A DNA stretch of 64,000 nucleotides from Burkholderiales bacterium (GTDB taxonomy: Bacteria > Pseudomonadota > Gammaproteobacteria > Burkholderiales > SG8-39): assembly GCA_020848075.1 (NCBI GenBank), contig JADLAV010000072.1, positions 44,062-108,061 on the forward strand, in the 5' to 3' direction. A program made the position numbers and the translations under genes. The stretch's first letter is position 1. Every line of letters starts with the position of its first letter. The notes beneath the pieces are model-generated. The model searched no databases and was not told the origin of the DNA. It saw nothing but the letters and a program-made list of their open reading frames with translations. Shown piece by piece: positions 18,213-28,328 of the stretch.

Positions 18213-18260
18213 TGGTCGGGGTGAGAGGATTCGAACCTCCGACACCTGCGTCCCGAACGC
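18213..18260. repeat. Left attachment-site repeat (tRNA-Pro fragment)
   Basis: 48 bp identical to 28281-28328. On the minus strand it is the 3' part of tRNA-Pro(CGG): anticodon arm, T arm, acceptor 3' strand and CCA. After 18260 the sequence diverges from a tRNA, so this copy cannot encode a functional RNA. It marks the left junction of the element. Confidence 0.93.
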
Positions 18261-18354
18261 GGCGCCCTACTCCTTGCGAATCAGGCAGTTAGCTTGTCGG
18301 TCAACAGGTTAGCGTACCGTTGTGGCCCGTTCCGTCCAGTTTTACCCTAGAATT

Positions 18355-18374
18355 TGCACTTACCCTGCACTTAC
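18355..18374 (+). promoter_or_regulatory. Paired GCACTTA repeats, putative integrase arm sites (left)
   Basis: TGCACTTAC occurs at 18355-18363 and 18366-18374, an 11-bp period (one helical turn). The same heptamer pair with the same period occurs at 28216-28233 near the other end. Short direct repeats near both att sites are the usual arm-type binding sites of tyrosine integrases. This copy sits directly before the int ATG, so it could also autoregulate int. Confidence 0.6.
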
Positions 18375-18385
18375 GGAGGCCCGTC

Positions 18386-19573
18386 ATGCGGATCAAGCTC
18401 ACCCCGGCGAAGCTCGCGAAGGCGGCACCCGCGAAGCGCCCCTACGAGATCCACGACGCGGAAGTGCGCGGCCTGCTCGTGCGCGTCCAGCCCTCGGGCG
18501 TCAAGTCGTTCATCGTGAGCTGGCGTCGCGGGCGCCGCAAGGTGATCGGGCGCGTAGGCGTACACACCATCGAGCAGATGCGCCTCAAAGCGAAGCGGAT
18601 CGTCATTGACGCTGAGGAACACGGCGAGCCGTCGATCGCGGAGCGCAAGCGCGCCGGCACGCTCGGGGAGTTCTACATCGACCACTTCAAGAGTCATGCG
18701 AAGGCGCACCACAAGGACGCCGACGGCAACCTGAAGGCGATCGAGACCGAGTTCGGGCACCTGTTCGACCGACCGCTCGCCTCCGTCTCCCCGTTCGATT
18801 TCGAGAAGTACCGGCAGAAGAAGCTGAAGGCCGGCGTCAAACCGCAGACGATCAATAGGCACTTCGACCGGCTCCATGCCCTGCTCGCCAAGGCCGTCGA
18901 CTGGAAGCACCTGTCGAAGCACCCGCTCGAGGACCTCAAGCGGGCCAAGGTCGACGAGGAGCACCGCGTGCGGTTCCTGTCCGACGACGAGGAGAAGCGG
19001 CTGCGCAAAGCGCTCGCTGCCCGCGACGCGAAGATGCGCCGAGAACGCGAGAGCGCGAACAAGTGGCGCAAGGCGCGCGGCTACCCGCTCTTTCCCGAGG
19101 TCGCTGAGGACGGCTTCGGGGATCACCTGACGCCCATGGTGCTCGTTTCCATGAACACCGGAATGCGCCGCGGCGAACTCCGGCAGATCGCTTGGGCCGA
19201 CGTCGACCTAAGCCACGGCGTGGTCACGATCCGCGGCGGCTACGCGAAGTCCAGACGCACGCGCCATGTTCCGCTCAATGCCGAGGCCGTCGACGTTCTC
19301 CACCGCTGGAAGCGCCAGACCGGCGAGGCCGAACGCGTTTTCGGCATCGCCCGCGTGGACAAGGCATGGAAGGCGCTGCTCAAGGTCGCCAAGGTGTCCG
19401 AGTTCCGCTGGCACGACTTGCGGCACCACTTCGCCAGCCGACTCGTCATGGCCGGCGTCGACTTGAACACTGTCCGCGAACTCCTCGGGCACGCCGACCT
19501 CAGCATGACGCTGCGGTATGCGCATCTCGCGCCCGAGCACAAGGCGGCGGCGGTGGCGAGGCTCGTCGCATGA
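18386..19573 (+). CDS. int: Tyrosine integrase
   Basis: Site-specific recombinase of 395 residues. The N-terminal DUF4102-like arm-binding part (VRGLLVRVQPSGVKSFIVSW) is followed by a SAM-like core-binding domain and the catalytic domain. Active-site residues visible: Arg in NTGMRRGELRQIAW, Lys in GGYAKSRRTRHVPL, His-x-x-Arg in WHDLRHHFASRLV, His in ELLGHADLS and the nucleophile Tyr in MTLRYAHL. ATG 18386 has ACGGAGG before it. It catalyses insertion into the tRNA-Pro gene. Its stop overlaps the next ATG (ATGA). Confidence 0.95.
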   Translation: MRIKLTPAKLAKAAPAKRPYEIHDAEVRGLLVRVQPSGVKSFIVSWRRGRRKVIGRVGVHTIEQMRLKAKRIVIDAEEHGEPSIAERKRAGTLGEFYIDHFKSHAKAHHKDADGNLKAIETEFGHLFDRPLASVSPFDFEKYRQKKLKAGVKPQTINRHFDRLHALLAKAVDWKHLSKHPLEDLKRAKVDEEHRVRFLSDDEEKRLRKALAARDAKMRRERESANKWRKARGYPLFPEVAEDGFGDHLTPMVLVSMNTGMRRGELRQIAWADVDLSHGVVTIRGGYAKSRRTRHVPLNAEAVDVLHRWKRQTGEAERVFGIARVDKAWKALLKVAKVSEFRWHDLRHHFASRLVMAGVDLNTVRELLGHADLSMTLRYAHLAPEHKAAAVARLVA

Positions 19574-20241
19574 AGATCAAGACCTTCGACGATCGCACCC
19601 GCCGAGAGCTCGAGTCCAGCTTCCGCGACTCGCTCCTGAAGGCGCGCCCCGACTTCGACCCCGAGGGGGCAGAAGAGGAGGCCGAGATCTTCGTCGGCGG
19701 GCTCGAGCGGATCGCCGGGCTCGAGGAGTTCCGCGGCGAGCGGGAACCGCAGCAGCGCCGGCGGGAGAACCTGGAGGCCTTCGCGAATGCGCTCGACCGC
19801 GCGATCGAGGCCGGTCTCCGTATGGATGATCACTCCCTCGGCTACGCCCTCGAACGCGGCCTCGACGAGATCAAGGCGCGGGAGGGAGCCGACTCGCTCA
19901 GGATCCAGTTGATCGCCTACGACCTGAAGGCCTTTCACGCCGGAGATCTGCGGAACTTCGCGCTCGGGGTCCGGAAGGCGATCCGGGATCTCCCGGCGCT
20001 CGACCCGACGACCTATTCGTCAGGGGAGCAGACCGCGCGCTGGATCGAGGACTACCTTGCGCGCCTGGGCATCCCCGTCTCGCAGACCGACACCGGGCTC
20101 GCGGGCAAGGCCTTCCACGCGGTGATGGAGCTTGCGGGGAAACCGCAGACCACGGCGAAGAACTGGCTGAGGAAGACTCAGAAGCAACCCGACTCGTTCG
20201 TCAATTTCCTGAGAGGGTTGAAGGCTCGCTTCTGGCACTAA
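19570..20241 (+). CDS. Element protein of unknown function, charged
   Basis: A 223-residue soluble protein, rich in Glu and Arg, with predicted helices throughout (for example RRENLEAFANALDRAIEAGL). No signal peptide, membrane segment or known motif was recognised. It is translationally coupled to int by an ATGA overlap, so its role may be tied to integration/excision or to regulation of the element. A hairpin overlapping its stop codon may end the int transcript. Confidence 0.7.
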   Translation: MKIKTFDDRTRRELESSFRDSLLKARPDFDPEGAEEEAEIFVGGLERIAGLEEFRGEREPQQRRRENLEAFANALDRAIEAGLRMDDHSLGYALERGLDEIKAREGADSLRIQLIAYDLKAFHAGDLRNFALGVRKAIRDLPALDPTTYSSGEQTARWIEDYLARLGIPVSQTDTGLAGKAFHAVMELAGKPQTTAKNWLRKTQKQPDSFVNFLRGLKARFWH

Positions 20242-20258
20242 CGCTGGCCGGCGTTAGT
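20237..20258 (+). terminator. Palindrome at end of int operon
   Basis: ACTAACGC and GCGTTAGT form a perfect 8-bp stem with a 6-nt loop, followed by TTTCTA. The TAA stop codon of the preceding gene lies in the stem. It could be a weak terminator or an operator for the AlpA-like gene that starts 63 bp later. Confidence 0.4.
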
Positions 20259-27494: not shown

Positions 27495-27530
27495 TCGCTT
27501 CTGCAGTCGTCCAGAAGCGGACCCGGCCAC

Positions 27531-28208
27531 CTAGGACTTGAGCGGTGGTTTGCCGGCCTCGGCCAACTTCTTATCGAGCGCCTCGCGTTTCTTTTTGCTG
27601 CGGGCCGGTTCGACATACAGGAAGTCAAAGAGGCTTTCGAGCACGTCCAGGTTCCACTCCGCCTCACCTGGTTCGACGGGAACAACCTCTCCCGAATGCT
27701 TGCTTTTGATTGGGTGCGCGGCGAAGTTACCGATCGCCCTTACTGCATCGAGGTTCTCGGCGATGTGTGTTGGCAGCCGATTCGATGCGAGAGCTTCCTC
27801 GATCGCGTCGTTCAGATCACGCTTGGCCGAAAGCTTGGCGTCCGCAAGGACATGCTGAAGGCAGCGTCGGCTAAGTCCTGCGGACGCCTTCGCGCTGTCA
27901 GCGAGAACAAGACATGCCTCGTCGTAGTCCTCCGAGATCTCCGTGTTCGTTACCTCTGGTGGAGCCTTCGGCCTAGAGACCCCCTTCGGGTAGACCATCC
28001 AGGTCCGAGGGCTGATGTACGGGCCTATGCGAGTCAAATGGAAGACCGCCTCGCGACAACGTGGGCATGCATAGTGCGTGATGAGCCACCTGTAGACGTC
28101 GCCCCTCGCATCCCGCCCAACATCACCCAGATCGATTTCGGTCGCGGTTGTATGGACAGAGGTAAGGCAGTGAGGGCACCGCGCGGCAATTTGACGCTCC
28201 TCACCCAT
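27531..28208 (-). CDS. DUF4145 protein with N-terminal zinc ribbon, probable cargo
   Basis: A 225-residue protein. The N-terminus has two CxxC knuckles (ARCPHCLTS and YACPRCREAVF), and the C-terminal half is a DUF4145 domain (LQHVLADAKLSAKRDLNDAI, then ENLDAVRAIGNFAAHPI). DUF4145 domains are often attached to restriction nucleases and other anti-phage proteins; the function here is unknown. It is the only minus-strand gene of the element, lies at its right edge, and its DNA is visibly less GC-rich than its neighbours, all typical of a cargo gene. The right arm-site pair lies in its promoter region. Confidence 0.82.
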   Translation of the reverse strand: MGEERQIAARCPHCLTSVHTTATEIDLGDVGRDARGDVYRWLITHYACPRCREAVFHLTRIGPYISPRTWMVYPKGVSRPKAPPEVTNTEISEDYDEACLVLADSAKASAGLSRRCLQHVLADAKLSAKRDLNDAIEEALASNRLPTHIAENLDAVRAIGNFAAHPIKSKHSGEVVPVEPGEAEWNLDVLESLFDFLYVEPARSKKKREALDKKLAEAGKPPLKS

Positions 28209-28215
28209 CGTCGGC

Positions 28216-28233
28216 GCACTTATATTGCACTTA
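28216..28233 (+). promoter_or_regulatory. Paired GCACTTA repeats, putative integrase arm sites (right)
   Basis: GCACTTA at 28216-28222 and 28227-28233, an 11-bp period, the same orientation and spacing as the pair at 18356-18373. They lie 48 bp inside the right att repeat and 7 bp upstream of the DUF4145 start codon. Confidence 0.6.
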
Positions 28234-28280
28234 TTGAGATAGGGTGGAGTTCCGAGCCAGCCGCTAACCTATTGATTTAT

Positions 28281-28328
28281 TGGTCGGGGTGAGAGGATTC
28301 GAACCTCCGACACCTGCGTCCCGAACGC
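28281..28328. repeat. Right attachment-site repeat
   Basis: 48 bp identical to 18213-18260. This copy is part of the intact tRNA-Pro gene. The crossover must lie within it; its inner edge is in the anticodon stem. Confidence 0.93.

What the first reader, a model, noticed from the sequence alone, without database searches (positions are those of the whole stretch)
18213..28328. Tail-less, capsid-forming phage satellite in a betaproteobacterium
The unit encodes integrase, AlpA-like regulator, replication ATPase, HNH, TerL, capsid, protease and portal, all intact and overlapping, yet no tail, lysis or head-completion genes. This is the gene content of capsid-forming phage-inducible chromosomal islands, which make their own heads and borrow tails. 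I know cf-PICIs mainly from enterobacteria and a few other groups; one at tRNA-Pro of a betaproteobacterium would be a new host lineage or family.
Basis: partly seen in the sequence, partly recalled or inferred. Interest (0 to 1): 0.93.

Follow-up and report, generated by a model that had tools for sequence, protein, structure and literature searches.

The report
Tail-less, self-packaging phage satellite
A 10-kilobase block inserted in a bacterial tRNA gene carries the genes for a virus head and its DNA-packaging motor but no recognisable tail genes, so it likely builds its own shell and is predicted to borrow tails from other viruses to spread; elements of this general kind are known, but this one and most of its branch show no recognisable copy of a packaging gene thought to be standard.

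Summary
A 10,068-bp island lies between a 48-bp copy of the tRNA-Pro 3' end (18213-18260) and the intact tRNA-Pro(CGG) gene. Two genomes of the same genus have the site without insert. The island holds integrase, a weak AlpA-like HTH, DUF3631 ATPase with iterons, HNH, TerL, capsid, protease and portal, about 95% coding; no tail gene was detected.

The satellite reading is supported; 'new host lineage' is not: elements of the canonical cf-PICI order with TerS occur in the same order of bacteria (3 of 399 genomes searched; also Diaphorobacter). What differs is architecture. The island belongs to a branch with order HNH-TerL-(...)-capsid-protease-portal, mostly in Alphaproteobacteria among named genomes. 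TerS models match 39 of 40 canonical-order loci but 2 of 67 of this branch. Where HNH and TerL are adjacent, TerL starts with MGxRG (53 of 53 relatives, and this island); with a TerS-sized gap in canonical order, 0 of 38. That link is confounded by descent. 

Connector and head-closure genes are also undetected, so I do not file it as a canonical cf-PICI, only as working like one. Its last gene resembles anti-phage gene PD-T7-4. Excision, particles, helper and tail use are untested.

The parts
18213..18260 (+). attL: 48-bp copy of the tRNA-Pro 3' end
   Evidence: 58 nt, 93%; first 48 identical
18386..19573 (+). tyrosine integrase, 395 aa
   Evidence: Pfam PF00589 E 3.3e-29; relative in the G001 element at the same tRNA, about 70% in its longest piece
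19570..20241 (+). g2, unknown, 223 aa
   Evidence: no Pfam match better than E 0.1, no PHROG match
20321..20524 (+). AlpA/excisionase-like small HTH, 67 aa
   Evidence: HTH_17 E 6.8e-4, below gathering score; PHROG recombination directionality factor E 0.03
20521..21897 (+). Rep-like DUF3631 ATPase, 458 aa
   Evidence: PF12307 E 5.6e-57; 57-60% identical in canonical-order elements L012-L016
21624..21822 (.). iterons (CCGCTACA/TGTAGCGG, five copies in both orientations), candidate replication origin at the 3' end of rep
   Evidence: same unit and place in L016 (8 copies) and L023 (5 copies)
21890..22165 (+). g5, unknown, 91 aa
   Evidence: no family match; one homologue in the protein search besides itself
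22173..22505 (+). g6, unknown, 110 aa
   Evidence: three homologues besides itself; AlphaFold low confidence
22508..22798 (+). HNH endonuclease, 96 aa
   Evidence: PF01844 E 1.8e-9; phrog_2323 E 5.5e-25
22858..24471 (+). terminase large subunit, 537 aa
   Evidence: phrog_9 E 8.5e-144; HK97-type TerL structure 6z6d E 1e-110 over residues 30-517
22858..22944 (+). TerL N-terminal tail (residues 1-29, begins MGLRGPNAKP; 8 K/R and no D/E in the first 30) beyond the match to 6z6d
24503..25792 (+). major capsid protein, HK97 family, 429 aa
   Evidence: PF05065 E 7e-40; capsid tree
25789..26307 (+). prohead protease S78, 172 aa
   Evidence: PF04586 E 3.6e-39
26304..27494 (+). portal, 396 aa
   Evidence: PF04860 E 1.3e-93
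27531..28208 (-). DUF4145 protein, PD-T7-4-like candidate anti-phage cargo, 225 aa
   Evidence: PF13643 E 5.9e-13; PADLOC PD-T7-4 E 4e-17
28281..28357 (-). tRNA-Pro(CGG), intact; its 3' 48 bp are attR

Best explanation
The 10,068-bp island between two 48-bp copies of the tRNA-Pro 3' end encodes integrase, a DUF3631 ATPase, HNH, TerL, capsid, protease and portal but no tail gene that any search here detected, and is predicted to be a phage satellite that would build and fill its own head and take its tail from a helper phage. Steps. (1) Integration into tRNA-Pro: shown by the repeats and by empty sites in relatives; excision by Int with the AlpA-like protein is inferred. (2) Replication by the DUF3631 ATPase from the iterons at the 3' end of its gene: inferred. 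(3) Procapsid from its own capsid, protease and portal: inferred from intact genes. (4) Packaging by HNH plus TerL without a recognisable TerS; the conserved N-terminal tail of TerL, or a small unknown protein such as g6, would take over DNA recognition: hypothesis. (5) Connector, head closure, tail and lysis supplied by the helper: inferred from absence. (6) The PD-T7-4-like gene likely serves as anti-phage cargo: inferred from a family match.
For: attL/attR and intact tRNA; site without insert in G003 and G002. Head genes intact, 95.4% coding. Phage records hold no close capsid: all 69 matching records are under 60% identity, and the best of the 30 shown is 39.4%, against 68% for L101 and 51-58% for the eleven other relatives of alignment A2. 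Capsid tree: window and both satellite orders (64 rows) part from phage and fused capsids (24 rows) at 99/98. HNH-TerL-capsid-protease-portal, all five in this order, in 55 of the 68 order-B loci, one of which is a fetched copy of the window; the other 13 miss one or more in the stretch held. Of 67 order-B loci 49 have an integrase within 3 kb after the head module; of the 21 with at least 6 kb held downstream 17 do, L191 does too by profile scan, L196 and L232 run into host genes, and L208 has integrases 1.0 kb upstream and 3.2 kb downstream. TerS 2 of 67 against 39 of 40; TerL MGxRG start 53 of 53 against 0 of 38.
Against: No evidence of excision, particles or helper. TerS, connector and head closure are undetected and could mean decay; most relatives of the branch do have a connector-like ORF (55 of 67 by an iterated model; by Pfam 24 of 79 small ORFs). 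A few order-B loci do have TerS between HNH and TerL (Pfam Terminase_4 in 2 and Terminase_7 in 1 of the 79 ORFs). Tape-measure PF10145 and Baseplate_J PF04865 were not found in the host assembly (the same searches ring in 7 and 3 of 14 control genomes), so no resident tailed helper was seen, in a 95%-complete draft. In the flank scan of 129 of 234 ORFs only 25 of 52 PHROG and 25 of 74 Pfam families were displayed, eight of the shown PHROGs without a name. The link of TerL tail and missing TerS rests on 3 independent pairs and is not significant.
Confidence: 0.72

Rival explanations
1. A decaying satellite: it once had connector, closure and perhaps TerS genes, lost them, possibly with the arrival of the DUF4145 gene, and no longer makes particles.
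For: The Salinisphaera relative L196 (same gene order, integrase 56%) has connector and head-completion genes directly after the portal; in the window a minus-strand cargo gene lies there instead. Iterated profiles of connector, closure and TerS find nothing in the window.
Against: All genes intact and closely packed, 95% coding. TerS absence is the rule in the branch, L196 included. 12 of 67 branch loci also lack both connector and closure matches, some on cut contigs.
Confidence: 0.18
2. An island that uses helper heads and carries its late genes as accessories or interference genes, like Gram-negative PICIs whose capsid gene is dispensable.
For: 21 of 29 reference Gram-negative PICIs carry a capsid gene that transfer does not need (PMC10111431, passages).
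Against: Here HNH, TerL, capsid, protease and portal are all present and intact, and the five occur in this order in 55 of 68 order-B loci.
Confidence: 0.07
3. Left half of a full prophage, or remnant of one.
For: Head genes with an integrase at a tRNA.
Against: The flanks outside both att sites align to the undisturbed chromosome of relatives; in the order-B loci with long flanks an integrase or host genes follow, not tails; capsid far from the phage capsids found.
Confidence: 0.03

Closest known systems
Canonical capsid-forming PICI (cf-PICI)
   Same: Integrase, AlpA-like gene, replication gene, HNH, TerL, capsid, protease, portal, no tail; capsid in the same satellite-only half of the tree as order-A elements, which carry the described cf-PICI set
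   Different: No TerS, connector or head closure found; order HNH-TerL-capsid-protease-portal instead of capsid-protease-portal-HNH-TerS-TerL-connector/closure. EcCIEDL933 itself was not compared
TerS-less branch ('type B' or 'order B', name mine), e.g. L101, L196, L207, L182
   Same: Gene order; HNH directly before TerL; TerL starting with MGxRG; no tail gene seen
   Different: Most have a connector-like ORF (55 of 67), and most have the integrase after the portal instead of at the left end (49 of 67 within 3 kb)
Gram-negative PICIs with late genes (e.g. EcCICFT073)
   Same: Size, integrase, AlpA, replication module, sometimes capsid
   Different: Use helper heads and packaging; described from PMC10111431 passages only
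MulchRoom/MiniFlayer satellites of Streptomyces phages
   Same: Own capsid and packaging genes; MulchRoom's tail is thought to come from its helper (PMC10690885 passages)
   Different: Virulent helpers, direct terminal repeats, other hosts; reported without homology to PICIs; MiniFlayer has a changed morphology
Phage HK97 terminase
   Same: TerL homologous to HK97-type TerL (6z6d) over residues 30-517
   Different: HK97 has a separate TerS, and the match lacks the 29-residue tail

Membership tests
cf-PICI (canonical) | Site-specific integration with tyrosine integrase and flanking att repeats | tested here: met
cf-PICI (canonical) | AlpA/Stl-type regulator | tested here: inconclusive
   AlpA-like only as sub-threshold HTH_17; Stl not sought separately
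cf-PICI (canonical) | Own replication gene and origin | tested here: inconclusive
   DUF3631 ATPase and iterons; function untested
cf-PICI (canonical) | Capsid, head maturation protease, portal | tested here: met
cf-PICI (canonical) | Head-tail connector and head closure genes | tested here: not met
   no Pfam/PHROG hit, no hit by iterated profiles
cf-PICI (canonical) | HNH endonuclease and TerL | tested here: met
cf-PICI (canonical) | TerS | tested here: not met
   no family hit; two iterated TerS profiles, no window hit
cf-PICI (canonical) | No tail genes | tested here: met
   all 12 genes between the att sites scanned, none tail-like; g2, g5 and g6 remain of unknown function
cf-PICI (canonical) | Capsid separate from phage capsids | tested here: met
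   (99/98), in a sample chosen by similarity to the window; not compared with EcCIEDL933 itself
cf-PICI (canonical) | Induced by a helper, own heads on helper tails | not testable with these tools
   needs infection and particles
TerS-less branch (type B) | Order HNH-TerL-(...)-capsid-protease-portal, TerL adjacent to HNH, MGxRG tail, no tail genes | tested here: met
PD-T7-4 anti-phage system | Match to the family model and demonstrated protection | tested here: inconclusive
   model match E 4e-17; protection not testable

The most novel reading that the evidence does not exclude
A whole branch of capsid-forming satellites has done away with the small terminase: HNH plus a TerL with a conserved MGxRGxGA tail recognise, cut and package satellite DNA. 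The betaproteobacterial element goes furthest, dropping connector and head closure as well, so that a head ending at the portal docks on helper neck and tail.
Probability: 0.3. Interest if true: 0.78.

Novelty: new variant of a known kind. Interest (0 to 1): 0.56.

Why it matters
TerS is the usual DNA-recognition subunit of terminases in HK97-type packaging (recalled). A natural TerS-less set (HNH and TerL adjacent in 53 relatives) would give a minimal system in which to ask what recognises the packaged DNA. An element that stops at the portal would test how far a satellite can outsource head completion. The branch also extends capsid-bearing satellites into many Alphaproteobacteria, with this island as the one betaproteobacterial member I saw, carrying a likely anti-phage gene.

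Tried and rejected
New host lineage for cf-PICIs: rejected (L218, L281-L283). Left half of a prophage: rejected. TerS or connector hidden in g5 or g6: no homology; two AlphaFold runs of g6 had mean pLDDT 61 and 57, so I made no fold search. TerL tail as a relic of P27-type TerS: of 82 such TerS ORFs 3 have the motif in the first 90 residues, and the 22 shown read mostly MATRGRKPLPTALK..., so descent is not shown. Statistical test of tail against TerS: 3 independent pairs, not significant. Link to E. coli cf-PICIs by DNA: one order-A capsid gene (L086) had no match in the E. coli genomes. The cf-PICI and SatelliteFinder papers are not held, so published host lists could not be checked. Paper searches: cf-PICI with Alphaproteobacteria 1 paper (listing; passages of it seen), large terminase without small terminase 0; weak evidence that the TerS-less branch is undescribed. 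Viral-contig search with g6 found nothing. Resident helper: PF10145 and PF04865 not found in the host assembly.

Rows dropped before counts. One search classed 183 loci with a capsid match: 40 order A, 68 order B (L260 is a copy of the window, so 67 relatives), 75 others with no TerL recognised in the held stretch, which were left out of the order counts. Searches left out TerLs cut at their N-terminus and the window's own copies; one search repeated with the strict motif (53 of 53, 0 of 38 and 3 of 5 unchanged; loci without related capsid and without HNH upstream 2 of 60 instead of 3 of 60). One search took 129 of the 234 ORFs: the 84 shortest were left out and 21 of the 150 longest; of those 21, L199, L201 and L232 were scanned were not. 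One search took 79 of 87 small ORFs. Trees were thinned at 75% (88 of 135 rows) and 80% identity (47 of 93 rows). Many rows are near-copies, so counts are not independent.
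Full report
What is there. The window lies in contig C72 of a 4.11-Mb, 91-contig draft. Between 18213 and 28280 sits a 10,068-bp island, 66% GC against 68% in both flanks, 95.4% coding. Its left end is a copy of the 3' 48 bp of tRNA-Pro(CGG); its right end abuts the complete tRNA gene. In same-genus G003 the left flank runs straight into the tRNA; in G002 too, apart from about 0.2 kb of diverged sequence beside it; G001 carries a different 10.3-kb element at the same site with a related integrase that reads in three frames. The insertion is real and site-specific.

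Genes. In order: integrase, unknown g2, small HTH protein (AlpA-like, sub-threshold), DUF3631 ATPase, unknown g5 and g6, HNH, TerL, capsid, S78 protease, portal, and on the other strand a DUF4145 protein. The DUF4145 protein matches the PADLOC model PD-T7-4 at E 4e-17. PD-T7-4 is named in a functional selection for anti-phage systems (PMC9519451: abstract start and one passage seen). TerL matches the structure 6z6d at E 1e-110 from residue 30 on, leaving a 29-residue tail with 8 K/R and no D/E in the first 30 residues.

Candidate origin. The 3' end of the ATPase gene holds iterons in both orientations: the 8-mer CCGCTACA/TGTAGCGG occurs five times within 300 bp, against at most three in 30 shuffles. 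The same 8-mer is the top repeat at the same place in L016 (8 copies, shuffle maximum 3) and L023 (5, shuffle maximum 4). Six of 17 examined rep 3' ends exceed their shuffles; the other eleven do not. Gram-negative PICIs have their origin downstream of the primase gene (PMC10111431 passage). I infer a Rep-iteron replication module.

Relatives. Searches by ATPase, capsid and TerL gave many loci of two orders. Order A (40 loci): capsid-protease-portal-HNH-TerS-TerL plus, in most, connector or closure, the set described for cf-PICIs (PMC10690885; PMC13230959; passages). Order B (68 loci with one copy of the window): TerL before capsid-protease-portal, 55 of 68 with HNH and all five genes in this order. 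Of 58 named-genome loci, 31 are order B; by my reading of the titles 28 of the 31 are alphaproteobacterial, the others Salinisphaera, a Desulfovibrio MAG and a Phycisphaerales MAG. In the host's family 3 of 98 genomes match the capsid model at E 1e-40: the host, and two whose capsids (open frames 478 and 608 aa) fall in the phage-side half of the capsid tree. In the order 16 of 399 match: the host, three with order A, and twelve with reading frames of 386-796 aa that all fall in the phage-side half. So the window is the only betaproteobacterial order-B element I saw (75 further loci could not be classed), but not the first capsid-bearing satellite of its order.

No tail. In 21 order-B loci with at least 6 kb held beyond the module, an integrase follows within 3 kb in 17 plus L191. 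L196 continues into what I read as host cytochrome-c biogenesis genes, L232 into rpoC, and L208 has an integrase 1.0 kb upstream and another 3.2 kb downstream. Very long ORFs beside the capsid module are RpoC (L232), alpha-2-macroglobulin (L199), TamB (L201) and an autotransporter-like protein (L217). The scan of 129 of 234 ORFs in and after the modules showed integrases (32), head-tail adaptors (3) and no tail family among the 25 of 52 PHROG families displayed, eight of which have no name (Pfam likewise, 25 of 74 displayed). Phage records hold no close capsid (69 records, all under 60%, best of the 30 shown 39.4%), and their TerLs are all under 60% too (1,575 records). The capsid tree puts all satellite rows on one side at 99/98, the window with L101 (100/99). 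Rows were chosen by similarity to the window, so the split is a statement about this sample.

Missing packaging and neck genes. TerS profiles match 39 of 40 order-A loci and 2 of 67 order-B loci; connector profiles 31 of 40 and 55 of 67; closure 27 of 40 and 8 of 67; the window none (iterated profiles that may drift). By Pfam, of 79 small order-B ORFs 24 are gp6-like connectors, 7 head-completion proteins, 2 Terminase_4 and 1 Terminase_7. Some order-B loci have an HTH/MerR-like gene between TerL and capsid (8 of 50 by MerR_1), a possible substitute TerS there; the window has no gene at that place.

The TerL tail. Where HNH and TerL are less than 210 bp apart, TerL begins MGxRG in 53 of 53 loci with a complete N-terminus (51 order B, plus L034 and L104), besides the window. 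Order-A loci with a TerS-sized gap: 0 of 38. Order-B loci with a gap: 3 of 5. Loci without a classed capsid and without HNH upstream: 2 of 60. Positions 7 (G, 55 of 58) and 8 (A, 51 of 58) were not part of the search motif and are conserved too; net charge of the first 30 residues averages +3.4 but ranges from -2 to +11. On a TerL tree built without the tail the association rests on 3 independent pairs and is not significant, so common descent explains it as well as function does.

How it likely works, and what is not shown. I commit to a satellite that makes and fills its own heads and uses helper tails (0.72). Shown: integration, gene content, intactness, absence of recognisable tail, TerS, connector and closure genes, membership of a branch in which no tail was seen. 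Inferred: excision, replication, head assembly, packaging, helper use, defence. The main rival is a satellite that has lost its neck genes and is dying (0.18). The own genome shows no match to one tape-measure and one baseplate family; cf-PICI EcCIEDL933 likewise was not mobilised by the 17 prophages of its strain (PMC11389934 passage), so this is not decisive.

Verdict. New variant of a known kind. It works like a cf-PICI but fails two tested parts of the published description, so it is not filed as one. Interest 0.56.

Noticed in passing
L250:4668-11104 (G000 contig C36): A second small element in the same genome: integrase, AAA_25 ATPase and a 603-aa TerL with a long N-terminus; I saw no other head gene in the ORFs listed.
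   Followed up: partly
L252:2334-12636 (G001): Same-genus genome carries a different 10.3-kb element in the same tRNA-Pro with a related integrase (about 70% in its longest piece) that reads in three frames, and other cargo.
   Followed up: partly
L284:164-8144 (G243), also L285 (G043): Short stretches with integrase, a large replication-type gene (by eye) and a long capsid reading frame (608 and 603 aa; fused protease-capsid by Pfam in L284), with no TerL or portal match; L284 also has a Nu1-type TerS.
   Followed up: partly
L315 (NZ_CP044475.1, Acinetobacter schindleri plasmid, record 45348-51228): A capsid-protease-portal-HNH-TerL-connector-closure set on a plasmid near repM, reminiscent of the Vibrio satellite-plasmids.
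   Followed up: no
window 27531-28208: DUF4145 protein matching anti-phage family PD-T7-4 (E 4e-17) placed between portal and attR.
   Followed up: partly
L213 and L232 (Sphingobium wenxiniae, same contig): Two order-B elements within one genome contig.
   Followed up: no
ORFs of alignment A3 (members not identified): Maf and RNase E/G genes recur in the flanks scanned (3 members each), suggesting a shared insertion site in some hosts.
   Followed up: no
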